64,000 nucleotides of DNA from Pagrus major. Its lineage: Eukaryota > Chordata > Actinopteri > Spariformes > Sparidae. Made by a program: the position numbers and the translations under genes. Shown piece by piece: positions 1 to 39,420 of the stretch (position 1 is the stretch's first letter; each line of letters opens with the position of its first letter). The stretch is taken from positions 9,925,697-9,989,696 of the forward strand of contig NC_133230.1 in assembly GCF_040436345.1 (NCBI RefSeq), given 5' to 3'. The notes beneath the pieces were generated by a model, which saw only the letters and a list, made by a program, of their open reading frames with translations, was not told the DNA's origin and did no database searches.

Positions 1-17
1 TTTCGAGTCAATCGGTC
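1..17 (+). other. CENP-B-box-like motif, present in nearly every monomer (example)
   Basis: TTTCGAGTCAATCGGTC is compared with the CENP-B box core nTTCGnnnnAnnCGGGn. Eight of nine fixed positions match; only the last G is T. Composite monomers carry TTTCGAGTCATTCGGTC, with the same score. The motif is intact even in the degenerate edge monomer (39142-39158). The one exception I saw is TTTCAAGTC near 9156. The match is seen directly; protein binding is inference, because fish CENP-B function is not established. Confidence 0.55.
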
Positions 18-173
18 CAAAGACCTGGAAGCTATTGAAAAAATGGGCTGAGGTTTTCATGAAAAATGGCCACTTTTTTCTTTAAAATATTCACCAAAAA
101 TACAAATTTCAACGGAATCCAATGGGAACTGCTGTGTCTTGTTCAGCCAGTATAGGACCACATTTGGGAGCGA
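1..173. repeat. Plain 173-bp satellite monomer (example)
   Basis: This is the first full plain monomer; the next begins at 174 with the same TTTCGAGTCAATCGG start. It is AT-rich, with the landmarks CCAAAGACCTGGAAGC, AAAATATTCACCAAAAATAC and GGAATCCAATGGGAAC. Two main sequence variants recur along the array: CAACGG with CTTGTTCAG, and CACCGG with CTCGTTCAG. A sub-variant with ATGGTCAC in place of ATGGCCAC usually introduces an extra CACCGG monomer. Confidence 0.95.
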
Positions 174-346
174 TTTCGAGTCAATCGGTCCAAAGACCTG
201 GAAGCTATTGAAAAAATGGGCTGAGGTTTTCATGAAAAATGGCCACTTTTTTCTTTAAAATATTCACCAAAAATACAAATTTCAACGGAATCCAATGGGA
301 ACTGCTCTCCCTCGTTCAGCCAGTAGAGGACCACATTCGTGCCGAA

Positions 347-566
347 TTTCGAGTCATTCGGTCAAAAGACGACCGTAACCCTAACCCTAACCCTAACCCT
401 AGCCCTAACCCTAACCCTAACCCTAACCCTAGCCCCAGCCTTAAGGCAGTCTCATGAAACATTGTACCTTTTCACTAAAATATTCACCAAAAATACAAAT
501 TTCAACGGAATCCAATGGGAACTGCTCTCCCTCGTTCAGCCAGTATAGGACCACATTTGGGAGCGA
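347..566. repeat. Composite monomer with telomeric insertion (example)
   Basis: This 220-bp unit lies between two successive TTTCGAGTCA starts. Its left part ends GTCAAAAGACGACCG, the counterpart of GTCCAAAGACCTGGA in the plain monomer. A telomeric block follows. Monomer similarity resumes at GGCAGTCTCATGAAACATTG, the counterpart of GCTGAGGTTTTCATGAAAAA. The telomeric hexamers therefore replaced a short central stretch of an ordinary monomer, and the hybrid was then amplified together with its neighbours. Confidence 0.9.
375..436. repeat. Interstitial telomeric block, first of 71
   Basis: The block is four CCCTAA-type hexamers with a CCCTAG interruption, four more, then CCCTAG and CCCC. On the other strand it reads TTAGGG. 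All 71 blocks share this design and orientation. The commonest form has five hexamers after the first CCCTAG. Confidence 0.95.
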
Positions 567-3500: not shown

Positions 3501-6500
3501 AGGTTTTCATGAAAAATGGCCACTTTTTTCTTTAAAATATTCACCAAAAATACAAATTTCAACGGAATCCAATGGGAACTGCTGTGTCTTGTTCAGCCAG
3601 TATAGGACCACATTTGGGAGCGATTTCGAGTCAATCGGTCCAAAGACCTGGAAGCTATTGAAAAAATGGGCTGAGGTTTTCATGAAAAATGGCCACTTTT
3701 TTCTTTAAAATATTCACCAAAAATACAAATTTCAACGGAATCCAATGGGAACTGCTCTCCCTCGTTCAGCCAGTAGAGGACCACATTCGTGCCGAATTTC
3801 GAGTCATTCGGTCAAAAGACGACCGTAACCCTAACCCTAACCCTAACCCTAGCCCTAACCCTAACCCTAACCCTAACCCTAACCCTAGCCCCAGCCTTAA
3901 GGCAGTCTCATGAAACATTGTACCTTTTCACTAAAATATTCACCAAAAATACAAATTTCAACGGAATCCAATGGGAACTGCTCTCCCTCGTTCAGCCAGT
4001 ATAGGACCACATTTGGGAGCGATTTCGAGTCAATCGGTCCAAAGACCTGGAAGCTATTGAAAAAAATGGGCTGAGGTTTTCATGAAAAATGGCCACTTTT
4101 TTCTTTAAAATATTCACCAAAAATACAAATTTCAACGGAATCCAATGGGAACTGCTCTCCCTCGTTCAGCCAGTAGAGGACCACATTCGTGCCGAATTTC
4201 GAGTCATTCGGTCAAAAGACGACCGTAACCCTAACCCTAACCCTAACCCTAGCCCTAACCCTAACCCTAACCCTAACCCTAACCCTAGCCCCAGCCTTAA
4301 GGCAGTCTCATGAAACATTGTACCTTTTCACTAAAATATTCACCAAAAATACAAATTTCACCGGAATCCAATGGGAACTGCTGTGTCTCGTTCAGCCAGT
4401 ATAGGACCACATTTGGGAGCGATTTCGAGTCAATCGGTCCAAAGACCTGGAAGCTATTGAAAAAATGGGCTGAGGTTTTCATGAAAAATGGTCACTTTTT
4501 TCTTTAAAATATTCACCAAAAATACAAATTTCACCGGAATCCAATGGGAACTGCTGTGTCTCGTTCAGCCAGTATAGGACCACATTTGGGAGCGATTTCG
4601 AGTCAATCGGTCCAAAGACCTGGAAGCTATTGAAAAAATGGGCTGAGGTTTTCATGAAAAATGGCCACTTTTTTCTTTAAAATATTCACCAAAAATACAA
4701 ATTTCAACGGAATCCAATGGGAACTGCTCTCCCTCGTTCAGCCAGTAGAGGACCACATTCGTGCCGAATTTCGAGTCATTCGGTCAAAAGACGACCGTAA
4801 CCCTAACCCTAACCCTAACCCTAGCCCTAACCCTAACCCTAACCCTAACCCTAACCCTAGCCCCAGCCTTAAGGCAGTCTCATGAAACATTGTACCTTTT
4901 CACTAAAATATTCACCAAAAATACAAATTTCACCGGAATCCAATGGGAACTGCTGTGTCTCGTTCAGCCAGTATAGGACCACATTTGGGAGCGATTTCGA
5001 GTCAATCGGTCCAAAGACCTGGAAGCTATTGAAAAAATGGGCTGAGGTTTTCATGAAAAATGGCCACTTTTTTCTTTAAAATATTCACCAAAAATACAAA
5101 TTTCAACGGAATCCAATGGGAACTGCTGTGTCTTGTTCAGCCAGTATAGGACCACATTTGGGAGCGATTTCGAGTCAATCGGTCCAAAGACCTGGAAGCT
5201 ATTGAAAAAATGGGCTGAGGTTTTCATGAAAAATGGCCACTTTTTTCTTTAAAATATTCACCAAAAATACAAATTTCAACGGAATCCAATGGGAACTGCT
5301 CTCCCTCGTTCAGCCAGTAGAGGACCACATTCGTGCCGAATTTCGAGTCATTCGGTCAAAAGACGACCGTAACCCTAACCCTAACCCTAACCCTAGCCCT
5401 AACCCTAACCCTAACCCTAACCCTAACCCTAGCCCCAGCCTTAAGGCAGTCTCATGAAACATTGTACCTTTTCACTAAAATATTCACCAAAAATACAAAT
5501 TTCAACGGAATCCAATGGGAACTGCTCTCCCTCGTTCAGCCAGTATAGGACCACATTTGGGAGCGATTTCGAGTCAATCGGTCCAAAGACCTGGAAGCTA
5601 TTGAAAAAATGGGCTGAGGTTTTCATGAAAAATGGCCACTTTTTTCTTTAAAATATTCACCAAAAATACAAATTTCAACGGAATCCAATGGGAACTGCTC
5701 TCCCTCGTTCAGCCAGTAGAGGACCACATTCGTGCCGAATTTCGAGTCATTCGGTCAAAAGACGACCGTAACCCTAACCCTAACCCTAACCCTAGCCCTA
5801 ACCCTAACCCTAACCCTAACCCTAGCCCCAGCCTTAAGGCAGTCTCATGAAACATTGTACCTTTTCACTAAAATATTCACCAAAAATACAAATTTCACCG
5901 GAATCCAATGGGAACTGCTGTGTCTCGTTCAGCCAGTATAGGACCACATTTGGGAGCGATTTCGAGTCAATCGGTCCAAAGACCTGGAAGCTATTGAAAA
6001 AATGGGCTGAGGTTTTCATGAAAAATGGCCACTTTTTTCTTTAAAATATTCACCAAAAATACAAATTTCAACGGAATCCAATGGGAACTGCTGTGTCTTG
6101 TTCAGCCAGTATAGGACCACATTTGGGAGCGATTTCGAGTCAATCGGTCCAAAGACCTGGAAGCTATTGAAAAAATGGGCTGAGGTTTTCATGAAAAATG
6201 GCCACTTTTTTCTTTAAAATATTCACCAAAAATACAAATTTCAACGGAATCCAATGGGAACTGCTCTCCCTCGTTCAGTCAGTAGAGGACCACATTCGTG
6301 CCGAATTTCGAGTCATTCGGTCAAAAGACGACCGTAACCCTAACCCTAACCCTAACCCTAGCCCTAACCCTAACCCTAACCCTAACCCTAACCCTAGCCC
6401 TAACCCTAACCCTAACCCTAACCCTAACCCTAGCCCCAGCCTTAAGGCAGTCTCATGAAACATTGTACCTTTTCACTAAAATATTCACCAAAAATACAAA

Positions 6501-9500
6501 TTTCACCGGAATCCAATGGGAACTGCTGTGTCTCGTTCAGCCAGTATAGGACCACATTTGGGAGCGATTTCGAGTCAATCGGTCCAAAGACCTGGAAGCT
6601 ATTGAAAAAATGGGCTGAGGTTTTCATGAAAAATGGCCACTTTTTTCTTTAAAATATTCACCAAAAATACAAATTTCAACGGAATCCAATGGGAACTGCT
6701 GTGTCTTGTTCAGCCAGTATAGGACCACATTTGGGAGCGATTTCGAGTCAATCGGTCCAAAGACCTGGAAGCTATTGAAAAAATGGGCTGAGGTTTTCAT
6801 GAAAAATGGCCACTTTTTTCTTTAAAATATTCACCAAAAATACAAATTTCAACGGAATCCAATGGGAACTGCTCTCCCTCGTTCAGCCAGTAGAGGACCA
6901 CATTCGTGCCGAATTTCGAGTCATTCGGTCAAAAGACGACCGTAACCCTAACCCTAACCCTAACCCTAGCCCTAACCCTAACCCTAACCCTAACCCTAAC
7001 CCTAGCCCTAACCCTAACCCTAACCCTAACCCTAACCCTAGCCCCAGCCTTAAGGCAGTCTCATGAAACATTGTACCTTTTCACTAAAATATTCACCAAA
7101 AATACAAATTTCACCGGAATCCAATGGGAACTGCTGTGTCTCGTTCAGCCAGTATAGGACCACATTTGGGAGCGATTTCGAGTCAATCGGTCCAAAGACC
7201 TGGAAGCTATTGAAAAAATGGGCTGAGGTTTTCATGAAAAATGGCCACTTTTTTCTTTAAAATATTCACCAAAAATACAAATTTCAACGGAATCCAATGG
7301 GAACTGCTGTGTCTTGTTCAGCCAGTATAGGACCACATTTGGGAGCGATTTCGAGTCAATCGGTCCAAAGACCTGGAAGCTATTGAAAAAATGGGCTGAG
7401 GTTTTCATGAAAAATGGCCACTTTTTTCTTTAAAATATTCACCAAAAATACAAATTTCAACGGAATCCAATGGGAACTGCTCTCCCTCGTTCAGCCAGTA
7501 GAGGACCACATTCGTGCCGAATTTCGAGTCATTCGGTCAAAAGACGACCGTAACCCTAACCCTAACCCTAACCCTAGCCCTAACCCTAACCCTAACCCTA
7601 ACCCTAACCCTAGCCCTAACCCTAACCCTAACCCTAACCCTAGCCCTAGCCCCAGCCTTAAGGCAGTCTCATGAAACATTGTACCTTTTCACTAAAATAT
7701 TCACCAAAAATACAAATTTCACCGGAATCCAATGGGAACTGCTGTGTCTCGTTCAGCCAGTATAGGACCACATTTGGGAGCGATTTCGAGTCAATCGGTC
7801 CAAAGACCTGGAAGCTATTGAAAAAATGGCCTGAGGTTTTCATGAAAAATGGCCACTTTTTTCTTTAAAATATTCACCAAAAATACAAATTTCAACGGAA
7901 TCCAATGGGAACTGCTGTGTCTTGTTCAGCCAGTATAGGACCACATTTGGGAGCGATTTCGAGTCAATCGGTCCAAAGACCTGGAAGCTATTGAAAAAAT
8001 GGGCTGAGGTTTTCATGAAAAATGGCCACTTTTTTCTTTAAAATATTCACCAAAAATACAAATTTCAACGGAATCCAATGGGAACTGCTCTCCCTCGTTC
8101 AGCCAGTAGAGGACCACATTCGTGCCGAATTTCGAGTCATTCGGTCAAAAGACGACCGTAACCCTAACCCTAACCCTAACCCTAGCCCTAACCCTAACCC
8201 TAACCCTAACCCTAACCCTAGCCCCAGCCTTAAGGCAGTCTCATGAAACATTGTACCTTTTCACTAAAATATTCACCAAAAATACAAATTTCACCGGAAT
8301 CCAATGGGAACTGCTCTCCCTCGTTCAGCCAGTATAGGACCACATTTGGGAGCGATTTCGAGTCAATCGGTCCAAAGACCTGGAAGCTATTGAAAAAATG
8401 GGCTGAGGTTTTCATGAAAAATGGCCACTTTTTTCTTTAAAATATTCACCAAAAATACAAATTTCAACGGAATCCAATGGGAACTGCTCTCCCTCGTTCA
8501 GCCAGTAGAGGACCACATTCGTGCCGAATTTCGAGTCATTCGGTCAAAAGACGACCGTAACCCTAACCCTAACCCTAACCCTAGCCCTAACCCTAACCCT
8601 AACCCTAACCCTAACCCTAGCCCCAGCCTTAAGGCAGTCTCATGAAACATTGTACCTTTTCACTAAAATATTCACCAAAAATACAAATTTCACCGGAATC
8701 CAATGGGAACTGCTGTGTCTCGTTCAGCCAGTATAGGACCACATTTGGGAGCGATTTCGAGTCAATCGGTCCAAAGACCTGGAAGCTATTGAAAAAATGG
8801 GCTGAGGTTTTCATGAAAAATGGCCACTTTTTTCTTTAAAATATTCACCAAAAATACAAATTTCAACGGAATCCAATGGGAACTGCTCTCCCTCGTTCAG
8901 CCAGTAGAGGACCACATTCGTGCCGAATTTCGAGTCATTCGGTCAAAAGACGACCGTAACCCTAACCCTAACCCTAACCCTAGCCCTAACCCTAACCCTA
9001 ACCCTAACCCTAACCCTAGCCCCAGCCTTAAGGCAGTCTCATGAAACATTGTACCTTTTCACTAAAATATTCACCAAAAATACAAATTTCACCGGAATCC
9101 AATGGGAACTGCTGTGTCTCGTTCAGCCAGTATAGGACCACATTTGGGAGCGATTTCAAGTCAATCGGTCCAAAGACCTGGAAGCTATTGAAAAAATGGG
9201 CTGAGGTTTTCATGAAAAATGGTCACTTTTTTCTTTAAAATATTCACCAAAAATACAAATTTCACCGGAATCCAATGGGAACTGCTGTGTCTCGTTCAGC
9301 CAGTATAGGACCACATTTGGGAGCGATTTCGAGTCAATCGGTCCAAAGACCTGGAAGCTATTGAAAAAATGGGCTGAGGTTTTCATGAAAAATGGCCACT
9401 TTTTTCTTTAAAATATTCACCAAAAATACAAATTTCAACGGAATCCAATGGGAACTGCTCTCCCTCGTTCAGCCAGTAGAGGACCACATTCGTGCCGAAT

Positions 9501-12500
9501 TTCGAGTCATTCGGTCAAAAGACGACCGTAACCCTAACCCTAACCCTAACCCTAGCCCTAACCCTAACCCTAACCCTAACCCTAACCCTAGCCCTAACCC
9601 TAACCCTAACCCTAACCCTAACCCTAGCCCCAGCCTTAAGGCAGTCTCATGAAACATTGTACCTTTTCACTAAAATATTCACCAAAAATACAAATTTCAC
9701 CGGAATCCAATGGGAACTGCTGTGTCTCGTTCAGCCAGTATAGGACCACATTTGGGAGCGATTTCGAGTCAATCGGTCCAAAGACCTGGAAGCTATTGAA
9801 AAAATGGCCTGAGGTTTTCATGAAAAATGGCCACTTTTTTCTTTAAAATATTCACCAAAAATACAAATTTCAACGGAATCCAATGGGAACTGCTGTGTCT
9901 TGTTCAGCCAGTATAGGACCACATTTGGGAGCGATTTCGAGTCAATCGGTCCAAAGACCTGGAAGCTATTGAAAAAATGGGCTGAGGTTTTCATGAAAAA
10001 TGGCCACTTTTTTCTTTAAAATATTCACCAAAAATACAAATTTCAACGGAATCCAATGGGAACTGCTCTCCCTCGTTCAGCCAGTAGAGGACCACATTCG
10101 TGCCGAATTTCGAGTCATTCGGTCAAAAGACGACCGTAACCCTAACCCTAACCCTAACCCTAGCCCTAACCCTAACCCTAACCCTAACCCTAACCCTAGC
10201 CCCAGCCTTAAGGCAGTCTCATGAAACATTGTACCTTTTCACTAAAATATTCACCAAAAATACAAATTTCAACGGAATCCAATGGGAACTGCTCTCCCTC
10301 GTTCAGCCAGTATAGGACCACATTTGGGAGCGATTTCGAGTCAATCGGTCCAAAGACCTGGAAGCTATTGAAAAAATGGGCTGAGGTTTTCATGAAAAAT
10401 GGCCACTTTTTTCTTTAAAATATTCACCAAAAATACAAATTTCAACGGAATCCAATGGGAACTGCTCTCCCTCGTTCAGCCAGTAGAGGACCACATTCGT
10501 GCCGAATTTCGAGTCATTCGGTCAAAAGACGACCGTAACCCTAACCCTAACCCTAACCCTAGCCCTAACCCTAACCCTAACCCTAACCCTAACCCTAGCC
10601 CCAGCCTTAAGGCAGTCTCATGAAACATTGTACCTTTTCACTAAAATATTCACCAAAAATACAAATTTCACCGGAATCCAATGGGAACTGCTGTGTCTCG
10701 TTCAGCCAGTATAGGACCACATTTGGGAGCGATTTCGAGTCAATCGGTCCAAAGACCTGGAAGCTATTGAAAAAATGGGCTGAGGTTTTCATGAAAAATG
10801 GTCACTTTTTTCTTTAAAATATTCACCAAAAATACAAATTTCACCGGAATCCAATGGGAACTGCTGTGTCTCGTTCAGCCAGTATAGGACCACATTTGGG
10901 AGCGATTTCGAGTCAATCGGTCCAAAGACCTGGAAGCTATTGAAAAAATGGGCTGAGGTTTTCATGAAAAATGGCCACTTTTTTCTTTAAAATATTCACC
11001 AAAAATACAAATTTCAACGGAATCCAATGGGAACTGCTCTCCCTCGTTCAGCCAGTAGAGGACCACATTCGTGCCGAATTTCGAGTCATTCGGTCAAAAG
11101 ACGACCGTAACCCTAACCCTAACCCTAACCCTAGCCCTAACCCTAACCCTAACCCTAACCCTAACCCTAGCCCCAGCCTTAAGGCAGTCTCATGAAACAT
11201 TGTACCTTTTCACTAAAATATTCACCAAAAATACAAATTTCACCGGAATCCAATGGGAACTGCTGTGTCTCGTTCAGCCAGTATAGGACCACATTTGGGA
11301 GCGATTTCGAGTCAATCGGTCCAAAGACCTGGAAGCTATTGAAAAAATGGGCTGAGGTTTTCATGAAAAATGGCCACTTTTTTCTTTAAAATATTCACCA
11401 AAAATACAAATTTCAACGGAATCCAATGGGAACTGCTGTGTCTTGTTCAGCCAGTATAGGACCACATTTGGGAGCGATTTCGAGTCAATCGGTCCAAAGA
11501 CCTGGAAGCTATTGAAAAAATGGGCTGAGGTTTTCATGAAAAATGGCCACTTTTTTCTTTAAAATATTCACCAAAAATACAAATTTCAACGGAATCCAAT
11601 GGGAACTGCTCTCCCTCGTTCAGCCAGTAGAGGACCACATTCGTGCCGAATTTCGAGTCATTCGGTCAAAAGACGACCGTAACCCTAACCCTAACCCTAA
11701 CCCTAGCCCTAACCCTAACCCTAACCCTAACCCTAACCCTAGCCCCAGCCTTAAGGCAGTCTCATGAAACATTGTACCTTTTCACTAAAATATTCACCAA
11801 AAATACAAATTTCAACGGAATCCAATGGGAACTGCTCTCCCTCGTTCAGCCAGTATAGGACCACATTTGGGAGCGATTTCGAGTCAATCGGTCCAAAGAC
11901 CTGGAAGCTATTGAAAAAATGGGCTGAGGTTTTCATGAAAAATGGCCACTTTTTTCTTTAAAATATTCACCAAAAATACAAATTTCAACGGAATCCAATG
12001 GGAACTGCTCTCCCTCGTTCAGCCAGTAGAGGACCACATTCGTGCCGAATTTCGAGTCATTCGGTCAAAAGACGACCGTAACCCTAACCCTAACCCTAAC
12101 CCTAGCCCTAACCCTAACCCTAACCCTAACCCTAGCCCCAGCCTTAAGGCAGTCTCATGAAACATTGTACCTTTTCACTAAAATATTCACCAAAAATACA
12201 AATTTCACCGGAATCCAATGGGAACTGCTGTGTCTCGTTCAGCCAGTATAGGACCACATTTGGGAGCGATTTCGAGTCAATCGGTCCAAAGACCTGGAAG
12301 CTATTGAAAAAATGGGCTGAGGTTTTCATGAAAAATGGCCACTTTTTTCTTTAAAATATTCACCAAAAATACAAATTTCAACGGAATCCAATGGGAACTG
12401 CTGTGTCTTGTTCAGCCAGTATAGGACCACATTTGGGAGCGATTTCGAGTCAATCGGTCCAAAGACCTGGAAGCTATTGAAAAAATGGGCTGAGGTTTTC

Positions 12501-15500
12501 ATGAAAAATGGCCACTTTTTTCTTTAAAATATTCACCAAAAATACAAATTTCAACGGAATCCAATGGGAACTGCTCTCCCTCGTTCAGTCAGTAGAGGAC
12601 CACATTCGTGCCGAATTTCGAGTCATTCGGTCAAAAGACGACCGTAACCCTAACCCTAACCCTAACCCTAGCCCTAACCCTAACCCTAACCCTAACCCTA
12701 ACCCTAGCCCTAACCCTAACCCTAACCCTAACCCTAACCCTAGCCCCAGCCTTAAGGCAGTCTCATGAAACATTGTACCTTTTCACTAAAATATTCACCA
12801 AAAATACAAATTTCACCGGAATCCAATGGGAACTGCTGTGTCTCGTTCAGCCAGTATAGGACCACATTTGGGAGCGATTTCGAGTCAATCGGTCCAAAGA
12901 CCTGGAAGCTATTGAAAAAATGGGCTGAGGTTTTCATGAAAAATGGCCACTTTTTTCTTTAAAATATTCACCAAAAATACAAATTTCAACGGAATCCAAT
13001 GGGAACTGCTGTGTCTTGTTCAGCCAGTATAGGACCACATTTGGGAGCGATTTCGAGTCAATCGGTCCAAAGACCTGGAAGCTATTGAAAAAATGGGCTG
13101 AGGTTTTCATGAAAAATGGCCACTTTTTTCTTTAAAATATTCACCAAAAATACAAATTTCAACGGAATCCAATGGGAACTGCTCTCCCTCGTTCAGCCAG
13201 TAGAGGACCACATTCGTGCCGAATTTCGAGTCATTCGGTCAAAAGACGACCGTAACCCTAACCCTAACCCTAACCCTAGCCCTAACCCTAACCCTAACCC
13301 TAACCCTAGCCCCAGCCTTAAGGCAGTCTCATGAAACATTGTACCTTTTCACTAAAATATTCACCAAAAATACAAATTTCAACGGAATCCAATGGGAACT
13401 GCTCTCCCTCGTTCAGCCAGTATAGGACCACATTTGGGAGCGATTTCGAGTCAATCGGTCCAAAGACCTGGAAGCTATTGAAAAAATGGGCTGAGGTTTT
13501 CATGAAAAATGGCCACTTTTTTCTTTAAAATATTCACCAAAAATACAAATTTCAACGGAATCCAATGGGAACTGCTGTGTCTTGTTCAGCCAGTATAGGA
13601 CCACATTTGGGAGCGATTTCGAGTCAATCGGTCCAAAGACCTGGAAGCTATTGAAAAAATGGGCTGAGGTTTTCATGAAAAATGGCCACTTTTTTCTTTA
13701 AAATATTCACCAAAAATACAAATTTCAACGGAATCCAATGGGAACTGCTCTCCCTCGTTCAGCCAGTAGAGGACCACATTCGTGCCGAATTTCGAGTCAT
13801 TCGGTCAAAAGACGACCGTAACCCTAACCCTAACCCTAACCCTAGCCCTAACCCTAACCCTAACCCTAACCCTAACCCTAGCCCCAGCCTTAAGGCAGTC
13901 TCATGAAACATTGTACCTTTTCACTAAAATATTCACCAAAAATACAAATTTCACCGGAATCCAATGGGAACTGCTGTGTCTCGTTCAGCCAGTATAGGAC
14001 CACATTTGGGAGCGATTTCGAGTCAATCGGTCCAAAGACCTGGAAGCTATTGAAAAAATGGGCTGAGGTTTTCATGAAAAATGGTCACTTTTTTCTTTAA
14101 AATATTCACCAAAAATACAAATTTCACCGGAATCCAATGGGAACTGCTGTGTCTCGTTCAGCCAGTATAGGACCACATTTGGGAGCGATTTCGAGTCAAT
14201 CGGTCCAAAGACCTGGAAGCTATTGAAAAAATGGGCTGAGGTTTTCATGAAAAATGGCCACTTTTTTCTTTAAAATATTCACCAAAAATACAAATTTCAA
14301 CGGAATCCAATGGGAACTGCTCTCCCTCGTTCAGCCAGTAGAGGACCACATTCGTGCCGAATTTCGAGTCATTCGGTCAAAAGACGACCGTAACCCTAAC
14401 CCTAACCCTAACCCTAGCCCTAACCCTAACCCTAACCCTAACCCTAACCCTAGCCCCAGCCTTAAGGCAGTCTCATGAAACATTGTACCTTTTCACTAAA
14501 ATATTCACCAAAAATACAAATTTCACCGGAATCCAATGGGAACTGCTGTGTCTCGTTCAGCCAGTATAGGACCACATTTGGGAGTGATTTCGAGTCAATC
14601 GGTCCAAAGACCTGGAAGCTATTGAAAAAATGGGCTGAGGTTTTCATGAAAAATGGCCACTTTTTTCTTTAAAATATTCACCAAAAATACAAATTTCAAC
14701 GGAATCCAATGGGAACTGCTGTGTCTTGTTCAGCCAGTATAGGACCACATTTGGGAGCGATTTCGAGTCAATCGGTCCAAAGACCTGGAAGCTATTGAAA
14801 AAATGGGCTGAGGTTTTCATGAAAAATGGCCACTTTTTTCTTTAAAATATTCACCAAAAATACAAATTTCAACGGAATCCAATGGGAACTGCTCTCCCTC
14901 GTTCAGCCAGTAGAGGACCACATTCGTGCCGAATTTCGAGTCATTCGGTCAAAAGACGACCGTAACCCTAACCCTAACCCTAACCCTAGCCCTAACCCTA
15001 ACCCTAACCCTAACCCTAACCCTAGCCCCAGCCTTAAGGCAGTCTCATGAAACATTGTACCTTTTCACTAAAATATTCACCAAAAATACAAATTTCAACG
15101 GAATCCAATGGGAACTGCTCTCCCTCGTTCAGCCAGTATAGGACCACATTTGGGAGCGATTTCGAGTCAATCGGTCCAAAGACCTGGAAGCTATTGAAAA
15201 AATGGGCTGAGGTTTTCATGAAAAATGGCCACTTTTTTCTTTAAAATATTCACCAAAAATACAAATTTCAACGGAATCCAATGGGAACTGCTCTCCCTCG
15301 TTCAGCCAGTAGAGGACCACATTCGTGCCGAATTTCGAGTCATTCGGTCAAAAGACGACCGTAACCCTAACCCTAACCCTAACCCTAGCCCTAACCCTAA
15401 CCCTAACCCTAACCCTAACCCTAGCCCCAGCCTTAAGGCAGTCTCATGAAACATTGTACCTTTTCACTAAAATATTCACCAAAAATACAAATTTCACCGG

Positions 15501-17094
15501 AATCCAATGGGAACTGCTGTGTCTCGTTCAGCCAGTATAGGACCACATTTGGGAGCGATTTCGAGTCAATCGGTCCAAAGACCTGGAAGCTATTGAAAAA
15601 ATGGGCTGAGGTTTTCATGAAAAATGGCCACTTTTTTCTTTAAAATATTCACCAAAAATACAAATTTCAACGGAATCCAATGGGAACTGCTGTGTCTTGT
15701 TCAGCCAGTATAGGACCACATTTGGGAGCGATTTCGAGTCAATCGGTCCAAAGACCTGGAAGCTATTGAAAAAATGGGCTGAGGTTTTCATGAAAAATGG
15801 CCACTTTTTTCTTTAAAATATTCACCAAAAATACAAATTTCAACGGAATCCAATGGGAACTGCTCTCCCTCGTTCAGCCAGTAGAGGACCACATTCGTGC
15901 CGAATTTCGAGTCATTCGGTCAAAAGACGACCGTAACCCTAACCCTAACCCTAACCCTAGCCCTAACCCTAACCCTAACCCTAACCCTAACCCTAGCCCT
16001 AACCCTAACCCTAACCCTAACCCTAACCCTAGCCCCAGCCTTAAGGCAGTCTCATGAAACATTGTACCTTTTCACTAAAATATTCACCAAAAATACAAAT
16101 TTCACCGGAATCCAATGGGAACTGCTGTGTCTCGTTCAGCCAGTATAGGACCACATTTGGGAGCGATTTCGAGTCAATCGGTCCAAAGACCTGGAAGCTA
16201 TTGAAAAAATGGGCTGAGGTTTTCATGAAAAATGGCCACTTTTTTCTTTAAAATATTCACCAAAAATACAAATTTCAACGGAATCCAATGGGAACTGCTG
16301 TGTCTTGTTCAGCCAGTATAGGACCACATTTGGGAGCGATTTCGAGTCAATCGGTCCAAAGACCTGGAAGCTATTGAAAAAATGGGCTGAGGTTTTCATG
16401 AAAAATGGCCACTTTTTTCTTTAAAATATTCACCAAAAATACAAATTTCAACGGAATCCAATGGGAACTGCTCTCCCTCGTTCAGCCAGTAGAGGACCAC
16501 ATTCGTGCCGAATTTCGAGTCATTCGGTCAAAAGACGACCGTAACCCTAACCCTAACCCTAACCCTAGCCCTAACCCTAACCCTAGCCCCAGCCTTAAGG
16601 CAGTCTCATGAAACATTGTACCTTTTCACTAAAATATTCACCAAAAATACAAATTTCAACGGAATCCAATGGGAACTGCTCTCCCTCGTTCAGCCAGTAT
16701 AGGACCACATTTGGGAGCGATTTCGAGTCAATCGGTCCAAAGACCTGGAAGCTATTGAAAAAATGGGCTGAGGTTTTCATGAAAAATGGCCACTTTTTTC
16801 TTTAAAATATTCACCAAAAATACAAATTTCAACGGAATCCAATGGGAACTGCTGTGTCTTGTTCAGCCAGTATAGGACCACATTTGGGAGCGATTTCGAG
16901 TCAATCGGTCCAAAGACCTGGAAGCTATTGAAAAAATGGGCTGAGGTTTTCATGAAAAATGGCCACTTTTTTCTTTAAAATATTCACCAAAAATACAAAT
17001 TTCAACGGAATCCAATGGGAACTGCTCTCCCTCGTTCAGCCAGTAGAGGACCACATTCGTGCCGAATTTCGAGTCATTCGGTCAAAAGACGACC

Positions 17095-17235
17095 GTAACC
17101 CTAACCCTAACCCTAACCCTAGCCCTAACCCTAACCCTAACCCTAACCCTAACCCTAGCCCTAACCCTAACCCTAACCCTAACCCTAACCCTAGCCCTAA
17201 CCCTAACCCTAACCCTAACCCTAACCCTAGCCCCA
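17095..17235. repeat. Longest class of telomeric block
   Basis: This block carries three copies of the 36-bp module (five CCCTAA plus one CCCTAG) after the initial four hexamers. Blocks of the same size lie at 18305-18445 and 32553-32693. The shortest block is 16542-16590. The block near 2658-2709 is unusual in lacking the internal CCCTAG. Confidence 0.9.
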
Positions 17236-26200: not shown

Positions 26201-29200
26201 CCTGGAAGCTATTGAAAAAATGGGCTGAGGTTTTCATGAAAAATGGTCACTTTTTTCTTTAAAATATTCACCAAAAATACAAATTTCACCGGAATCCAAT
26301 GGGAACTGCTGTGTCTCGTTCAGCCAGTATAGGACCACATTTGGGAGCGATTTCGAGTCAATCGGTCCAAAGACCTGGAAGCTATTGAAAAAATGGGCTG
26401 AGGTTTTCATGAAAAATGGCCACTTTTTTCTTTAAAATATTCACCAAAAATACAAATTTCAACGGAATCCAATGGGAACTGCTCTCCCTCGTTCAGCCAG
26501 TAGAGGACCACATTCGTGCCGAATTTCGAGTCATTCGGTCAAAAGACGACCGTAACCCTAACCCTAACCCTAACCCTAGCCCTAACCCTAACCCTAACCC
26601 TAACCCTAACCCTAGCCCCAGCCTTAAGGCAGTCTCATGAAACATTGTACCTTTTCACTAAAATATTCACCAAAAATACAAATTTCACCGGAATCCAATG
26701 GGAACTGCTGTGTCTCGTTCAGCCAGTATAGGACCACATTTGGGAGCGATTTCGAGTCAATCGGTCCAAAGACCTGGAAGCTATTGAAAAAATGGGCTGA
26801 GGTTTTCATGAAAAATGGCCACTTTTTTCTTTAAAATATTCACCAAAAATACAAATTTCAACGGAATCCAATGGGAACTGCTGTGTCTTGTTCAGCCAGT
26901 ATAGGACCACATTTGGGAGCGATTTCGAGTCAATCGGTCCAAAGACCTGGAAGCTATTGAAAAAATGGGCTGAGGTTTTCATGAAAAATGGCCACTTTTT
27001 TCTTTAAAATATTCACCAAAAATACAAATTTCAACGGAATCCAATGGGAACTGCTCTCCCTCGTTCAGCCAGTAGAGGACCACATTCGTGCCGAATTTCG
27101 AGTCATTCGGTCAAAAGACGACCGTAACCCTAACCCTAACCCTAACCCTAGCCCTAACCCTAACCCTAACCCTAACCCTAACCCTAGCCCCAGCCTTAAG
27201 GCAGTCTCATGAAACATTGTACCTTTTCACTAAAATATTCACCAAAAATACAAATTTCAACGGAATCCAATGGGAACTGCTCTCCCTCGTTCAGCCAGTA
27301 TAGGACCACATTTGGGAGCGATTTCGAGTCAATCGGTCCAAAGACCTGGAAGCTATTGAAAAAATGGGCTGAGGTTTTCATGAAAAATGGCCACTTTTTT
27401 CTTTAAAATATTCACCAAAAATACAAATTTCAACGGAATCCAATGGGAACTGCTCTCCCTCGTTCAGCCAGTAGAGGACCACATTCGTGCCGAATTTCGA
27501 GTCATTCGGTCAAAAGACGACCGTAACCCTAACCCTAACCCTAACCCTAGCCCTAACCCTAACCCTAACCCTAACCCTAGCCCCAGCCTTAAGGCAGTCT
27601 CATGAAACATTGTACCTTTTCACTAAAATATTCACCAAAAATACAAATTTCACCGGAATCCAATGGGAACTGCTGTGTCTCGTTCAGCCAGTATAGGACC
27701 ACATTTGGGAGCGATTTCGAGTCAATCGGTCCAAAGACCTGGAAGCTATTGAAAAAATGGGCTGAGGTTTTCATGAAAAATGGCCACTTTTTTCTTTAAA
27801 ATATTCACCAAAAATACAAATTTCAACGGAATCCAATGGGAACTGCTGTGTCTTGTTCAGCCAGTATAGGACCACATTTGGGAGCGATTTCGAGTCAATC
27901 GGTCCAAAGACCTGGAAGCTATTGAAAAAATGGGCTGAGGTTTTCATGAAAAATGGCCACTTTTTTCTTTAAAATATTCACCAAAAATACAAATTTCAAC
28001 GGAATCCAATGGGAACTGCTCTCCCTCGTTCAGTCAGTAGAGGACCACATTCGTGCCGAATTTCGAGTCATTCGGTCAAAAGACGACCGTAACCCTAACC
28101 CTAACCCTAACCCTAGCCCTAACCCTAACCCTAACCCTAACCCTAACCCTAGCCCTAACCCTAACCCTAACCCTAACCCTAACCCTAGCCCCAGCCTTAA
28201 GGCAGTCTCATGAAACATTGTACCTTTTCACTAAAATATTCACCAAAAATACAAATTTCACCGGAATCCAATGGGAACTGCTGTGTCTCGTTCAGCCAGT
28301 ATAGGACCACATTTGGGAGCGATTTCGAGTCAATCGGTCCAAAGACCTGGAAGCTATTGAAAAAATGGGCTGAGGTTTTCATGAAAAATGGCCACTTTTT
28401 TCTTTAAAATATTCACCAAAAATACAAATTTCAACGGAATCCAATGGGAACTGCTGTGTCTTGTTCAGCCAGTATAGGACCACATTTGGGAGCGATTTCG
28501 AGTCAATCGGTCCAAAGACCTGGAAGCTATTGAAAAAATGGGCTGAGGTTTTCATGAAAAATGGCCACTTTTTTCTTTAAAATATTCACCAAAAATACAA
28601 ATTTCAACGGAATCCAATGGGAACTGCTCTCCCTCGTTCAGCCAGTAGAGGACCACATTCGTGCCGAATTTCGAGTCATTCGGTCAAAAGACGACCGTAA
28701 CCCTAACCCTAACCCTAACCCTAGCCCTAACCCTAACCCTAACCCTAACCCTAGCCCCAGCCTTAAGGCAGTCTCATGAAACATTGTACCTTTTCACTAA
28801 AATATTCACCAAAAATACAAATTTCAACGGAATCCAATGGGAACTGCTCTCCCTCGTTCAGCCAGTATAGGACCACATTTGGGAGCGATTTCGAGTCAAT
28901 CGGTCCAAAGACCTGGAAGCTATTGAAAAAATGGGCTGAGGTTTTCATGAAAAATGGCCACTTTTTTCTTTAAAATATTCACCAAAAATACAAATTTCAA
29001 CGGAATCCAATGGGAACTGCTGTGTCTTGTTCAGCCAGTATAGGACCACATTTGGGAGCGATTTCGAGTCAATCGGTCCAAAGACCTGGAAGCTATTGAA
29101 AAAATGGGCTGAGGTTTTCATGAAAAATGGCCACTTTTTTCTTTAAAATATTCACCAAAAATACAAATTTCAACGGAATCCAATGGGAACTGCTCTCCCT

Positions 29201-32200
29201 CGTTCAGCCAGTAGAGGACCACATTCGTGCCGAATTTCGAGTCATTCGGTCAAAAGACGACCGTAACCCTAACCCTAACCCTAACCCTAGCCCTAACCCT
29301 AACCCTAACCCTAACCCTAACCCTAGCCCCAGCCTTAAGGCAGTCTCATGAAACATTGTACCTTTTCACTAAAATATTCACCAAAAATACAAATTTCACC
29401 GGAATCCAATGGGAACTGCTGTGTCTCGTTCAGCCAGTATAGGACCACATTTGGGAGCGATTTCGAGTCAATCGGTCCAAAGACCTGGAAGCTATTGAAA
29501 AAATGGGCTGAGGTTTTCATGAAAAATGGTCACTTTTTTCTTTAAAATATTCACCAAAAATACAAATTTCACCGGAATCCAATGGGAACTGCTGTGTCTC
29601 GTTCAGCCAGTATAGGACCACATTTGGGAGCGATTTCGAGTCAATCGGTCCAAAGACCTGGAAGCTATTGAAAAAATGGGCTGAGGTTTTCATGAAAAAT
29701 GGCCACTTTTTTCTTTAAAATATTCACCAAAAATACAAATTTCAACGGAATCCAATGGGAACTGCTCTCCCTCGTTCAGCCAGTAGAGGACCACATTCGT
29801 GCCGAATTACGAGTCATTCGGTCAAAAGACGACCGTAACCCTAACCCTAACCCTAACCCTAGCCCTAACCCTAACCCTAACCCTAACCCTAACCCTAGCC
29901 CCAGCCTTAAGGCAGTCTCATGAAACATTGTACCTTTTCACTAAAATATTCACCAAAAATACAAATTTCACCGGAATCCAATGGGAACTGCTGTGTCTCG
30001 TTCAGCCAGTATAGGACCACATTTGGGAGTGATTTCGAGTCAATCGGTCCAAAGACCTGGAAGCTATTGAAAAAATGGGCTGAGGTTTTCATGAAAAATG
30101 GCCACTTTTTTCTTTAAAATATTCACCAAAAATACAAATTTCAACGGAATCCAATGGGAACTGCTGTGTCTTGTTCAGCCAGTATAGGACCACATTTGGG
30201 AGCGATTTCGAGTCAATCGGTCCAAAGACCTGGAAGCTATTGAAAAAATGGGCTGAGGTTTTCATGAAAAATGGCCACTTTTTTCTTTAAAATATTCACC
30301 AAAAATACAAATTTCAACGGAATCCAATGGGAACTGCTCTCCCTCGTTCAGCCAGTAGAGGACCACATTCGTGCCGAATTTCGAGTCATTCGGTCAAAAG
30401 ACGACCGTAACCCTAACCCTAACCCTAACCCTAGCCCTAACCCTAACCCTAACCCTAACCCTAACCCTAGCCCCAGCCTTAAGGCAGTCTCATGAAACAT
30501 TGTACCTTTTCACTAAAATATTCACCAAAAATACAAATTTCAACGGAATCCAATGGGAACTGCTCTCCCTCGTTCAGCCAGTATAGGACCACATTTGGGA
30601 GCGATTTCGAGTCAATCGGTCCAAAGACCTGGAAGCTATTGAAAAAATGGGCTGAGGTTTTCATGAAAAATGGCCACTTTTTTCTTTAAAATATTCACCA
30701 AAAATACAAATTTCAACGGAATCCAATGGGAACTGCTCTCCCTCGTTCAGCCAGTAGAGGACCACATTCGTGCCGAATTTCGAGTCATTCGGTCAAAAGA
30801 CGACCGTAACCCTAACCCTAACCCTAACCCTAGCCCTAACCCTAACCCTAACCCTAACCCTAACCCTAGCCCCAGCCTTAAGGCAGTCTCATGAAACATT
30901 GTACCTTTTCACTAAAATATTCACCAAAAATACAAATTTCACCGGAATCCAATGGGAACTGCTGTGTCTCGTTCAGCCAGTATAGGACCACATTTGGGAG
31001 CGATTTCGAGTCAATCGGTCCAAAGACCTGGAAGCTATTGAAAAAATGGGCTGAGGTTTTCATGAAAAATGGCCACTTTTTTCTTTAAAATATTCACCAA
31101 AAATACAAATTTCAACGGAATCCAATGGGAACTGCTGTGTCTTGTTCAGCCAGTATAGGACCACATTTGGGAGCGATTTCGAGTCAATCGGTCCAAAGAC
31201 CTGGAAGCTATTGAAAAAATGGGCTGAGGTTTTCATGAAAAATGGCCACTTTTTTCTTTAAAATATTCACCAAAAATACAAATTTCAACGGAATCCAATG
31301 GGAACTGCTCTCCCTCGTTCAGCCAGTAGAGGACCACATTCGTGCCGAATTTCGAGTCATTCGGTCAAAAGACGACCGTAACCCTAACCCTAACCCTAAC
31401 CCTAGCCCTAACCCTAACCCTAACCCTAACCCTAACCCTAGCCCTAACCCTAACCCTAACCCTAACCCTAACCCTAGCCCCAGCCTTAAGGCAGTCTCAT
31501 GAAACATTGTACCTTTTCACTAAAATATTCACCAAAAATACAAATTTCACCGGAATCCAATGGGAACTGCTGTGTCTCGTTCAGCCAGTATAGGACCACA
31601 TTTGGGAGCGATTTCGAGTCAATCGGTCCAAAGACCTGGAAGCTATTGAAAAAATGGGCTGAGGTTTTCATGAAAAATGGCCACTTTTTTCTTTAAAATA
31701 TTCACCAAAAATACAAATTTCAACGGAATCCAATGGGAACTGCTGTGTCTTGTTCAGCCAGTATAGGACCACATTTGGGAGCGATTTCGAGTCAATCGGT
31801 CCAAAGACCTGGAAGCTATTGAAAAAATGGGCTGAGGTTTTCATGAAAAATGGCCACTTTTTTCTTTAAAATATTCACCAAAAATACAAATTTCAACGGA
31901 ATCCAATGGGAACTGCTCTCCCTCGTTCAGCCAGTAGAGGACCACATTCGTGCCGAATTTCGAGTCATTCGGTCAAAAGACGACCGTAACCCTAACCCTA
32001 ACCCTAACCCTAGCCCTAACCCTAACCCTAACCCTAACCCTAGCCCCAGCCTTAAGGCAGTCTCATGAAACATTGTACCTTTTCACTAAAATATTCACCA
32101 AAAATACAAATTTCAACGGAATCCAATGGGAACTGCTCTCCCTCGTTCAGCCAGTATAGGACCACATTTGGGAGCGATTTCGAGTCAATCGGTCCAAAGA

Positions 32201-35200: not shown

Positions 35201-38200
35201 AAATACAAATTTCAACGGAATCCAATGGGAACTGCTCTCCCTCGTTCAGCCAGTAGAGGACCACATTCGTGCCGAATTTCGAGTCATTCGGTCAAAAGAC
35301 GACCGTAACCCTAACCCTAACCCTAACCCTAGCCCTAACCCTAACCCTAACCCTAACCCTAACCCTAGCCCCAGCCTTAAGGCAGTCTCATGAAACATTG
35401 TACCTTTTCACTAAAATATTCACCAAAAATACAAATTTCACCGGAATCCAATGGGAACTGCTGTGTCTCGTTCAGCCAGTATAGGACCACATTTGGGAGC
35501 GATTTCGAGTCAATCGGTCCAAAGACCTGGAAGCTATTGAAAAAATGGGCTGAGGTTTTCATGAAAAATGGCCACTTTTTTCTTTAAAATATTCACCAAA
35601 AATACAAATTTCAACGGAATCCAATGGGAACTGCTGTGTCTTGTTCAGCCAGTATAGGACCACATTTGGGAGCGATTTCGAGTCAATCGGTCCAAAGACC
35701 TGGAAGCTATTGAAAAAATGGGCTGAGATTTTCATGAAAAATGGCCACTTTTTTCTTTAAAATATTCACCAAAAATACAAATTTCAACGGAATCCAATGG
35801 GAACTGCTCTCCCTCGTTCAGCCAGTAGAGGACCACATTCGTGCCGAATTTCGAGTCATTCGGTCAAAAGACGACCGTAACCCTAACCCTAACCCTAACC
35901 CTAGCCCTAACCCTAACCCTAACCCTAACCCTAACCCTAGCCCCAGCCTTAAGGCAGTCTCATGAAACATTGTACCTTTTCACTAAAATATTCACCAAAA
36001 ATACAAATTTCAACGGAATCCAATGGGAACTGCTGTGTCTCGTTCAGCCAGTATAGGACCACATTTGGGAGCGATTTCGAGTCAATCGGTCCAAAGACCT
36101 GGAAGCTATTGAAAAAATGGGCTGAGGTTTTCATGAAAAATGGCCACTTTTTTCTTTAAAATATTCACCAAAAATACAAATTTCAACGGAATCCAATGGG
36201 AACTGCTCTCCCTCGTTCAGCCAGTAGAGGACCACATTCGTGCCGAATTTCGAGTCATTCGGTCAAAAGACGACCGTAACCCTAACCCTAACCCTAACCC
36301 TAGCCCTAACCCTAACCCTAACCCTAACCCTAACCCTAGCCCCAGCCTTAAGGCAGTCTCATGAAACATTGTACCTTTTCACTAAAATATTCACCAAAAA
36401 TACAAATTTCACCGGAATCCAATGGGAACTGCTGTGTCTCGTTCAGCCAGTATAGGACCACATTTGGGAGCGATTTCGAGTCAATCGGTCCAAAGACCTG
36501 GAAGCTATTGAAAAAATGGGCTGAGGTTTTCATGAAAAATGGTCACTTTTTTCTTTAAAATATTCACCAAAAATACAAATTTCACCGGAATCCAATGGGA
36601 ACTGCTGTGTCTCGTTCAGCCAGTATAGGACCACATTTGGGAGCGATTTCGAGTCAATCGGTCCAAAGACCTGGAAGCTATTGAAAAAATGGGCTGAGGT
36701 TTTCATGAAAAATGGCCACTTTTTTCTTTAAAATATTCACCAAAAATACAAATTTCAACGGAATCCAATGGGAACTGCTGTGTCTTGTTCAGCCAGTATA
36801 GGACCACATTTGGGAGCGATTTCGAGTCAATCGGTCCAAAGACCTGGAAGCTATTGAAAAAATGGGCTGAGGTTTTCATGAAAAATGGCCACTTTTTTCT
36901 TTAAAATATTCACCAAAAATACAAATTTCAACGGAATCCAATGGGAACTGCTCTCCCTCGTTCAGCCAGTAGAGGACCACATTCGTGCCGAATTTCGAGT
37001 CATTCGGTCAAAAGACGACCGTAACCCTAACCCTAACCCTAACCCTAGCCCTAACCCTAACCCTAACCCTAACCCTAACCCTAGCCCCAGCCTTAAGGCA
37101 GTCTCATGAAACATTGTACCTTTTCACTAAAATATTCACCAAAAATACAAATTTCACCGGAATCCAATGGGAACTGCTGTGTCTCGTTCAGCCAGTATAG
37201 GACCACATTTGGGAGCGATTTCGAGTCAATCGGTCCAAAGACCTGGAAGCTATTGAAAAAATGGGCTGAGGTTTTCATGAAAAATGGCCACTTTTTTCTT
37301 TAAAATATTCACCAAAAATACAAATTTCAACGGAATCCAATGGGAACTGCTGTGTCTTGTTCAGCCAGTATAGGACCACATTTGGGAGCGATTTCGAGTC
37401 AATCGGTCCAAAGACCTGGAAGCTATTGAAAAAATGGGCTGAGGTTTTCATGAAAAATGGCCACTTTTTTCTTTAAAATATTCACCAAAAATACAAATTT
37501 CAACGGAATCCAATGGGAACTGCTCTCCCTCGTTCAGCCAGTAGAGGACCACATTCGTGCCGAATTTCGAGTCATTCGGTCAAAAGACGACCGTAACCCT
37601 AACCCTAACCCTAACCCTAGCCCTAACCCTAACCCTAACCCTAACCCTAGCCCCAGCCTTAAGGCAGTCTCATGAAACATTGTACCTTTTCACTAAAATA
37701 TTCACCAAAAATACAAATTTCAACGGAATCCAATGGGAACTGCTCTCCCTCGTTCAGCCAGTATAGGACCACATTTGGGAGCGATTTCGAGTCAATCGGT
37801 CCAAAGACCTGGAAGCTATTGAAAAAATGGGCTGAGGTTTTCATGAAAAATGGCCACTTTTTTCTTTAAAATATTCACCAAAAATACAAATTTCAACGGA
37901 ATCCAATGGGAACTGCTCTCCCTCGTTCAGCCAGTAGAGGACCACATTCGTGCCGAATTTCGAGTCATTCGGTCAAAAGACGACCGTAACCCTAACCCTA
38001 ACCCTAACCCTAGCCCTAACCCTAACCCTAACCCTAACCCTAACCCTAGCCCCAGCCTTAAGGCAGTCTCATGAAACATTGTACCTTTTCACTAAAATAT
38101 TCACCAAAAATACAAATTTCACCGGAATCCAATGGGAACTGCTGTGTCTCGTTCAGCCAGTATAGGACCACATTTGGGAGCGATTTCGAGTCAATCGGTC

Positions 38201-38969
38201 CAAAGACCTGGAAGCTATTGAAAAAATGGGCTGAGGTTTTCATGAAAAATGGTCACTTTTTTCTTTAAAATATTCACCAAAAATACAAATTTCACCGGAA
38301 TCCAATGGGAACTGCTGTGTCTCGTTCAGCCAGTATAGGACCACATTTGGGAGCGATTTCGAGTCAATCGGTCCAAAGACCTGGAAGCTATTGAAAAAAT
38401 GGGCTGAGGTTTTCATGAAAAATGGCCACTTTTTTCTTTAAAATATTCACCAAAAATACAAATTTCAACGGAATCCAATGGGAACTGCTGTGTCTTGTTC
38501 AGCCAGTATAGGACCACATTTGGGAGCGATTTCGAGTCAATCGGTCCAAAGACCTGGAAGCTATTGAAAAAATGGGCTGAGGTTTTCATGAAAAATGGCC
38601 ACTTTTTTCTTTAAAATATTCACCAAAAATACAAATTTCAACGGAATCCAATGGGAACTGCTCTCCCTCGTTCAGCCAGTAGAGGACCACATTCGTGCCG
38701 AATTTCGAGTCATTCGGTCAAAAGACGACCGTAACCCTAACCCTAACCCTAACCCTAGCCCTAACCCTAACCCTAACCCTAACCCTAACCCTAGCCCTAA
38801 CCCTAACCCTAACCCTAACCCTAACCCTAACCCTAGCCCCAGCCTTAAGGCAGTCTCATGAAACATTGTACCTTTTCACTAAAATATTCACCAAAAATAC
38901 AAATTTCACCGGAATCCAATGGGAACTGCTGTGTCTCGTTCAGCCAGTATAGGACCACATTTGGGAGCG

Positions 38970-39299
38970 ATTTCGAGTCAATCGGTCCAAACACCTGGAA
39001 GCTATTGAAAAAATCAGCCAACATTTTCATGAAAAATGGCCGCTTTTCTTTAAAATATTCACCAAAAATACAAATTTCACCGGAATCCAATAAAAACTGC
39101 TGTGTCTCGTTCAGCCAGTATAGGACCACATTTCTGATCGATTTCGAGTCAATCGGTCAAACGACCTGGAAGCTATTTAAAAAATCGGCCGTTGTTTTCA
39201 TGAAAAATGGCCACTTTTTTCTTTAAAATATTCATAAAAAATACAAATTCCACTAACATCCAAAAAAAACTATACATGGCTTAAACACTGGCCCAGTAT
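38970..39299. repeat. Degenerate terminal monomers at the array edge
   Basis: The last two monomers depart from the otherwise near-identical array: AAAATCAGCCAACATTTTC and AAAATCGGCCGTTGTTTTC replace AAAATGGGCTGAGGTTTTC, and TTTCTGATCG replaces TTTGGGAGCG. The final partial monomer decays further and meets the MHC flank at CCAGTAT (39293-39299). Diverged border monomers are typical of satellites that homogenise by unequal exchange. Confidence 0.88.
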
Positions 39300-39420
39300 C
39301 TGTTAAAGGAGCCTTCTGACAACTAAAAAGCTGACTGACTGATGTCCTGTAACGCTTCACCTCTGAGGAGGTCATAAGATACATTTAGAAAGAAAGAGAA
39401 ACAAACTGAAAGTGAGAGAC
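39300..39420 (+). repeat. Duplicated MHC flank, copy 1
   Basis: This segment (starting near TGTTAAAGGAGCCTTCTGAC) is almost identical to 47393-47515, which lies upstream of gene 2. It marks the 5' edge of the duplicated MHC unit to which gene 1 belongs. The satellite borders it on the left and a gypsy remnant interrupts it on the right. Confidence 0.88.

What the first reader, a model, noticed from the sequence alone, without database searches (positions are those of the whole stretch)
1..39299. Composite satellite: telomeric hexamer blocks fixed inside a nucleosome-sized satellite and amplified as a higher-order repeat
Seventy-one CCCTAA blocks sit at the same internal position of a 173-bp-type monomer, all in one orientation, separated by one, two or three plain monomers (399, 572 or 745 bp). 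A telomeric stretch was captured once inside a monomer and the hybrid was then spread by unequal exchange. This is neither simple telomere nor ordinary interstitial telomeric sequence. It could act as a recombination hotspot, TRF-protein binding platform or G-quadruplex array.
Basis: partly seen in the sequence, partly recalled or inferred. Interest (0 to 1): 0.78.

Follow-up and report, generated by a model that had tools for sequence, protein, structure and literature searches.

The report
Telomere-bearing satellite on many fish chromosomes
A fish-like genome carries thousands of copies of a tandem repeat with a short piece of telomere built in at one fixed spot, found on most chromosomes and, wherever it was sampled, nearly always pointing the way the nearest chromosome end points; telomere-bearing satellites are known, but this shared direction is unusual and testable.

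Summary
Window 1-39271 is one satellite array of 201 complete units: 130 plain (about 173 bp) and 71 hybrids carrying a CCCTAA block at one fixed position and orientation. It is the right-hand part of a roughly 240-265-kb array on contig C16 (31.07 Mb) of a 786-Mb assembly, probably a bony fish. The exact 5' junction occurs 18,184 times genome-wide. I located 29 loci on 19 of 24 nuclear contigs, in three related families that share the insertion point; this fits one capture of telomeric DNA followed by exchange between chromosomes. In 29 of 29 loci the sampled CCCTAA strand points as a telomere at the nearest contig end would; 15 of these were found after the rule was written down. Two further placements are kept apart: a mixed-orientation array (C1) and a discordant near-identical copy of the C16 locus at the start of C3. 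Spacing is irregular, so this is no strict higher-order repeat. Telomere-bearing pericentromeric satellites are already known (PaB6 in Prospero): a new variant of a known kind. One isolated copy (C5) is bounded by TTAA at the palindrome next to every block, hinting at a mobile unit. Centromere, TRF and G-quadruplex roles were not testable.

The parts
1..39271 (+). Composite satellite array: 130 plain and 71 hybrid complete units; cut by the window's left edge
372..435 (+). First telomeric block of the window (example of 71)
438..447 (.). Palindrome GCCTTAAGGC beside the block; its TTAA (441-444) is where the isolated C5 copy begins and ends
1..17 (+).
   Evidence: 53 of 2000 shuffles of the monomer do as well
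10001..16000 (+). Stretch repeated at 25446-31445 (lag 15,445 bp, identity 0.999-1.0 per kilobase)
38881..39271 (+). Diverged edge: two monomers (155-163 identical positions of 171-173 to type a) and a fragment

Best explanation
A high-copy satellite of the heterochromatin of a fish, probably beside the centromere and in the shorter arms. A stretch of telomeric DNA replaced part of one monomer once, next to a GCCTTAAGGC palindrome (inferred from shared junctions). The hybrid and its plain neighbours then spread together: locally by unequal exchange (exact duplications and block length steps are shown; the process is inferred), and between chromosomes by exchange of arrays (identical monomers on several contigs are shown). 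In the sampled loci the arrays keep one direction relative to the nearest contig end. The likeliest reason (inferred) is that arrays are traded while chromosome ends or short arms lie together in meiosis, and that crossing over between arrays of opposite polarity gives dicentric or acentric products and is lost. The telomeric block is most likely a passenger; at most (inferred, untested) it is a nucleosome-poor gap or a docking site for telomere proteins between nucleosome-sized monomers.
For: Fixed junctions: 18,184 exact copies of the 5' junction. Same insertion point in three families; seven hybrid-specific substitutions shared by families I and II. Exact duplications at lags 15,445 and 6,310 bp. 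Block steps of 36 bp (family I) and 32 bp (family II). The same 173-bp monomer on C3, C9, C12, C16 and C19. Polarity in 29 of 29 counted loci, 15 of them found after the rule was noted. Size and share resemble medaka centromeres (20-345 kb, about 1-2% of the genome; PMC5705604, passages): about 240-265 kb on C16, about 1.3% in all by extrapolation.
Against: Seven contigs have more than one locus (C1, C3, C5, C10, C11, C15, C18, C21 and C22 do, nine if neighbouring ones are kept apart), so these cannot all be centromeres. The C1 array at 6.66-6.80 Mb has both orientations. The copy at the start of C3 points the wrong way, if it is real there. None was seen on C2, C4, C6, C14 and C17. No CENP-A, FISH or methylation data. 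Polarity was read from rare variants and short samples, not along whole arrays, and contig ends are mostly not assembled telomeres.
Confidence: 0.55

Rival explanations
1. The composite is the tandem form of a short non-autonomous mobile element inserting at TTAA: the telomeric block lies just inside one end, and CAGCC-TTAA-GGCAG in every hybrid is the junction of two elements sharing one target site.
For: The isolated copy at C5:2.313 Mb (right part, one 173-bp plain unit, left part, block) sits in unrelated sequence, starts at TTAAGGCAG and ends at CAGCCTTAAGG, so TTAA flanks it on both sides exactly at the palindrome.
Against: One copy only; the ends share little more than GGC; no transposase was sought. 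A circle cut from an array and joined at a TTAA microhomology would look alike. The search for more copies did not complete.
Confidence: 0.2
2. The arrays are former chromosome-end (subtelomeric) DNA that moved inward as chromosome ends grew or rearranged; the telomere polarity is a relic of that origin and not of exchange rules.
For: Polarity follows the nearest end even on contigs with loci in both halves (C3, C5, C22). Blocks hold variant repeats, as the inner part of telomeres does (recalled). C13 starts inside an array.
Against: Arrays lie up to about 23 Mb from an end (C5), and the chromosome-end repeat seen at C1 and C6 is a different sequence.
Confidence: 0.3
3. Relic of telomere-telomere fusion (fusion-type interstitial telomere), later amplified.
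For: Such relics are described in fishes (PMC9693754, passages).
Against: No head-to-head tract in the window: all blocks are in one direction, and blocks sit inside monomers at one exact position.
Confidence: 0.04
4. Assembly artefact.
For: The start of C3 is a near-identical reverse copy of the C16 locus followed by N at 200 kb, so haplotigs or wrong joins exist.
Against: The plain-hybrid alternation recurs with different variants on 19 contigs, often within single samples of 1-4 kb.
Confidence: 0.03

Closest known systems
PaB6 satellite of Prospero autumnale (PMC4273535; passages seen)
   Same: Vertebrate-type TTAGGG repeats inside a satellite monomer; pericentromeric; on several to all chromosomes; high copy number.
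   Different: A plant; 249-bp monomer with seven intact TTAGGG dispersed in it; no contiguous block in only some monomers and no polarity rule in the passages I saw.
Heterochromatic interstitial telomeric sequences (het-ITS) of vertebrates, fishes included (PMC9693754; passages)
   Same: Telomeric DNA in or near (peri)centromeric heterochromatin, described for some species as a component of satellite DNA.
   Different: Usually large TTAGGG blocks seen by FISH; here short blocks at one fixed place of a satellite unit.
Medaka centromeric satellites (PMC5705604; passages)
   Same: Fish satellite arrays of 20-345 kb, about 1-2% of the genome, grouped in families shared between chromosomes.
   Different: No telomeric block mentioned in the passages I saw; sequences not compared.
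Satellite of Sparidae associated with telomeric sequences (Garrido-Ramos 1998; title in reference lists, and review text on DraI)
   Same: A fish satellite linked with telomeric sequence.
   Different: Described as subtelomeric with some interstitial loci; sequence not available here.
Mouse TLC satellite (PMC8122249; passages)
   Same: A satellite (146-bp unit) lying between centromere satellite and telomere.
   Different: No telomeric block is described in the passages I saw; uniform polarity of mouse centromere satellites is recalled only.

Membership tests
Satellite DNA | Long head-to-tail array of near-identical units | tested here: met
   201 complete units
Satellite DNA | Many loci and high copy number | tested here: met
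   18,184 exact junctions; 29 loci on 19 of 24 nuclear contigs
Higher-order repeat (alpha-satellite type) | Fixed multimer of diverged monomers repeated as a unit | tested here: not met
   One, two or three plain monomers between hybrids (17, 49 and 4 of 70); long duplications exist but no regular period
Interstitial telomeric sequence | TTAGGG repeats away from chromosome ends | tested here: met
   C16:9.925-9.965 Mb of 31.07 Mb
Fusion-type interstitial telomere | Head-to-head telomere tract | tested here: not met
   No TTAGGG in the window's array; the C1 strand switch joins satellite units
Centromeric satellite | Binds CENP-A or lies at the primary constriction | not testable with these tools
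   No ChIP or FISH data
Centromeric satellite | One main locus per chromosome | tested here: not met
   Several loci on C1, C3, C5, C10, C11, C15, C18, C21 and C22
Centromeric satellite | CENP-B box | tested here: inconclusive
   8 of 9 core bases; 53 of 2000 shuffles reach this
TTAA-target (piggyBac-type) non-autonomous element | TTAA on both sides of dispersed copies | tested here: inconclusive
   One isolated copy fits; search for more unanswered
TTAA-target (piggyBac-type) non-autonomous element | Terminal inverted repeats | tested here: inconclusive
   By eye only GGCAG against GGCTG
PaB6-like telomere-bearing pericentromeric satellite | Sequence homology to PaB6 | not tested
   PaB6 sequence not held; similarity is of design only

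The most novel reading that the evidence does not exclude
A TTAA-targeting mobile unit carrying telomeric DNA near its edge seeded tandem arrays on most chromosomes of a fish, and these arrays keep the polarity of the nearest telomere genome-wide, so that one satellite records which chromosome end each segment belongs to and limits which exchanges between chromosomes are viable.
Probability: 0.15. Interest if true: 0.8.

Novelty: new variant of a known kind. Interest (0 to 1): 0.52.

Why it matters
If the polarity rule holds along whole arrays, it is a genome-wide signature of how satellites move between non-homologous chromosomes, and it makes the idea of exchange at the meiotic telomere bouquet (proposed for medaka acrocentric chromosomes, PMC5705604, passages) testable from sequence alone. 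The block is also a natural marker: junctions, families and 36- or 32-bp steps separate capture, spread and local turnover. In practice, telomere probes or read-based telomere length estimates in this species would be inflated by some 18,000 internal blocks.

Tried and rejected
A BLAST-type genome search with the plain monomer found nothing, as common words are skipped, so exact patterns were used. Listings stop at about 100 places, so loci were found through rare variants; loci without such variants are missed. A 19-mer of the monomer had no exact match in viral contigs or genome contigs, and the isolated copy none in the plasmid collection. Six sequence fragments were in no held paper. Rfam: nothing at gathering level; one weak LINE 3' element in the flank; nothing at E 0.001. 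Naming the species by mitochondrial length failed. Four or more 32-bp family II units in a row: none. Rejected readings: chromosome-specific families (identical monomers on several contigs); one array per chromosome; strict higher-order repeat. No description of this satellite turned up in searches; other names and closed journals are not covered.
Full report
What is there. Window 1-39271 is one satellite array. Cutting at a conserved anchor gives 201 complete units, 130 plain and 71 hybrid. Plain units are 173 bp in 128 of 130 and fall mainly into three close types (44 b, 40 a and 18 c exact copies; pairwise 169-171 of 173 identical). A hybrid has a 119-bp left part (107 of 116 aligned positions identical to type c), a telomeric block starting GACGACCG|TAACCC, and a 40-bp right part, identical in 71 of 71, starting AGCCTTAAGGC. 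650 of the window's 654 CCCTAA words and none of its 4 TTAGGG words are in the array. CCCTAA/CCCTAG runs make up 12.4% of it, and 71 G-quadruplex patterns lie on its - strand, none elsewhere in the window.

Block structure. With T=CCCTAA and g=CCCTAG the commonest block is TTTgTTTTTg followed by CCCC (40 of 71). Twelve have one T less, ten have one more TTTTTg, three have two more, and six are single variants. The large steps are thus 36 bp and include the variant hexamer, which points to recombination or slippage on a fixed template and not to telomerase. Of 35 short-block hybrids found genome-wide, none had an empty block; the shortest still had two CCCTAA.

Array structure. Two (49), one (17) or three (4) plain monomers separate successive hybrids in 70 intervals, so this is no strict higher-order repeat. 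Exact long duplications exist: lag 15,445 bp, identity 0.999-1.0 per kilobase over 10001-16000, and lag 6,310 bp over 5001-7000. The longest identical run of typed units is 24 (4,600 bp) against a mean maximum of 7.6 and a highest of 13 in 200 phrase shuffles. Edge monomers are more diverged, as unequal exchange predicts.

Where it lies. The window is C16:9,925,697-9,989,696 of an assembly of 785,883,843 bases in 25 contigs. C25 has 17,031 bp and begins like a mitochondrial genome (recognised by recall), which leaves 24 nuclear contigs. The flank holds MHC class I domains, of which one was compared with solved structures (best 5h5z, E 2.7e-23; that this is a carp protein is recalled), and Ty3-type gag and RNase H pieces. 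A bony fish is likely; the species is unknown. To the left, 10 kb more of the same array was read; samples at 9.725, 9.740, 9.75, 9.80, 9.825, 9.875 and 9.895 Mb are satellite on the + strand, the one at 9.850 is an insertion, and ten samples at 9.1-9.70 Mb and four at 10.005-10.2 Mb hold none. Samples at 9.740-9.80 are family II, those at 9.825-9.895 are family I.

Genome-wide. The exact junction occurs 7,517 times forward and 10,667 reverse, about 10 Mb or 1.3% of the genome if spaced as in the window. Because listings are cut at about 100, loci were found through rare variants: short blocks (35 hits), long spans (31 hits, some covering more than one block), three point-variant patterns (7, 68 and 27 hits), and the sampled start of C13. 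This gives 29 loci on 19 of 24 nuclear contigs (C1, C3, C5, C7-C13, C15, C16, C18-C24), besides the C1:6.69 and C3-start placements below; C2, C4, C6, C14 and C17 gave none, which does not prove absence. All 29 were read as sequence in samples of 400 bp or more (C16 is the window).

Families. Family I (plain 173 bp, block ending TAGCCCC): C3:3.49, C5:22.76, C9, C12, C16, C19. Family II (plain 151 bp, a 22-bp deletion plus 3 substitutions; 32-bp block unit with CTCCATAA; ending TAATGCC): C1, C3:22.82, C5:8.31, C7, C8, C10:3.09 and 6.38, C11, C13, C15, C18, C20, C21:30.19, C22:4.33, C23, C24 and the left part of the C16 array. C21:26.85 is mosaic. Family III (TAGCCCCATAA; ending TAACTCC): C22:28.22 and C10:4.36; the isolated C5 copy resembles it. 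Families I and II differ at 10 of 119 left-part positions but share seven hybrid-specific substitutions, so the hybrid most likely arose once, before they split. The same 173-bp monomer occurs on C3, C9, C12, C16 and C19, so exchange between chromosomes is recent.

Polarity. In all 29 loci the sampled CCCTAA strand runs from the nearest contig end inward, as a telomere at that end would: + in the left half, - in the right half. I wrote the rule down; the 15 loci found later (C10:4.36, C11 two, C18 two, C5:8.31 and 2.31, C21:26.85, C22 two, C1:11.75, C7, C20, C15:23.44, C24) obeyed it. One vote for each of the 15 contigs with loci in one half only gives 2 x 0.5^15 = 6e-5; counts per locus are smaller still, but neighbouring loci may not be independent. 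C3, C5 and C22 have loci in both halves, each fitting its own half. Against the rule: the C1 array is minus at 6.66-6.691 Mb and plus from there to at least 6.80 Mb, so it is not among the 29. The copy at the start of C3 is minus at the left end; C3:36001-44000 matches window 51801-43802 with 5 mismatches and no gap and C3:200001-200600 is N, so I read it as a haplotig and did not count it; if real, it makes 29 of 30. Loci at 0.54 (C5) and 0.57 (C24) of the contig are near the middle. Strand was not followed along whole arrays, and of the contig starts sampled only C11 began with telomere-like repeats.

An isolated copy. C5:2.313 Mb holds one short copy (right part, one 173-bp plain monomer, left part, block) in otherwise unrelated sequence, judged by eye. 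It begins at TTAAGGCAG and ends at CAGCCTTAAGG, so both ends sit at the TTAA of the palindrome. A TTAA-target element would leave this, and the palindrome in every hybrid would then be a head-to-tail junction. It is a single case; the search for more did not complete.

How it most likely works. Shown: fixed insertion point, exact local duplications, stepwise block lengths, identical monomers on several contigs, polarity of the sampled loci. Inferred: a single capture, spread by same-direction exchange between chromosome ends or short arms, and residence in pericentromeric or short-arm heterochromatin. Array size and genome share resemble medaka centromeres (20-345 kb, about 1-2%; PMC5705604, passages), and the monomer has a CENP-B-like motif (200 sites; 53 of 2000 shuffles do as well), but several loci per contig show that not all can be centromeres.

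What is known. PaB6 of Prospero (PMC4273535, passages) is a pericentromeric satellite with TTAGGG in its monomer. Reviews describe telomeric repeats as part of vertebrate satellites and four kinds of interstitial telomere in fishes (PMC9693754, passages), telomeric repeats at centromeres (PMC5615363, passages) and the mouse TLC satellite (PMC8122249, passages). The kind is known. New here, as far as searches show, are a contiguous block in only some monomers, kept in three families, and the polarity of the sampled loci.

Noticed in passing
C3:1 to about 195 kb against C16:9.84-10.005 Mb (L060, L062, L081): Reverse copy of the window's locus at the start of C3 (5 mismatches in 8,000 bp), followed by N at 200 kb; probably a haplotig scaffolded onto C3.
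   Followed up: partly
43168-45071 (+), 51247-53637 (+), 60703-63095 (-): MHC class I-like exons in three groups, the nearest about 4 kb from the satellite edge; part of the first two groups is about 93% identical.
   Followed up: partly
39416-39724 (+) and 54736-55662 (-): Ty3-type RNase H and gag pieces in the flank.
   Followed up: no
L008 (C1:22501-24986) and L065 (C6:1-400): A different chromosome-end repeat of about 2.2 kb spacing with CCCTAA blocks mixed with CCCTTCCC-type variants; 99% identical piece at the start of C6.
   Followed up: no
L042 (C16:9850001-9850700) and L060 (C3:191001): A tandem-like unrelated insertion inside the satellite array, shared by both copies of the locus (99.8% over 449 bp).
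   Followed up: no
C1 about 6.6914 Mb (L009): Strand switch inside the C1 array: minus at 6.66-6.691 Mb, plus from there to at least 6.80 Mb.
   Followed up: partly
C12:23.48-23.52 Mb: Hybrid units in which a telomeric run is followed directly by a second copy of the 5' junction (CAAAAGACGA), 16 hits.
   Followed up: no
42951-42999 (+): Sub-threshold match to the UnaL2 LINE 3' element (36.5 bits against a gathering score of 55).
   Followed up: no
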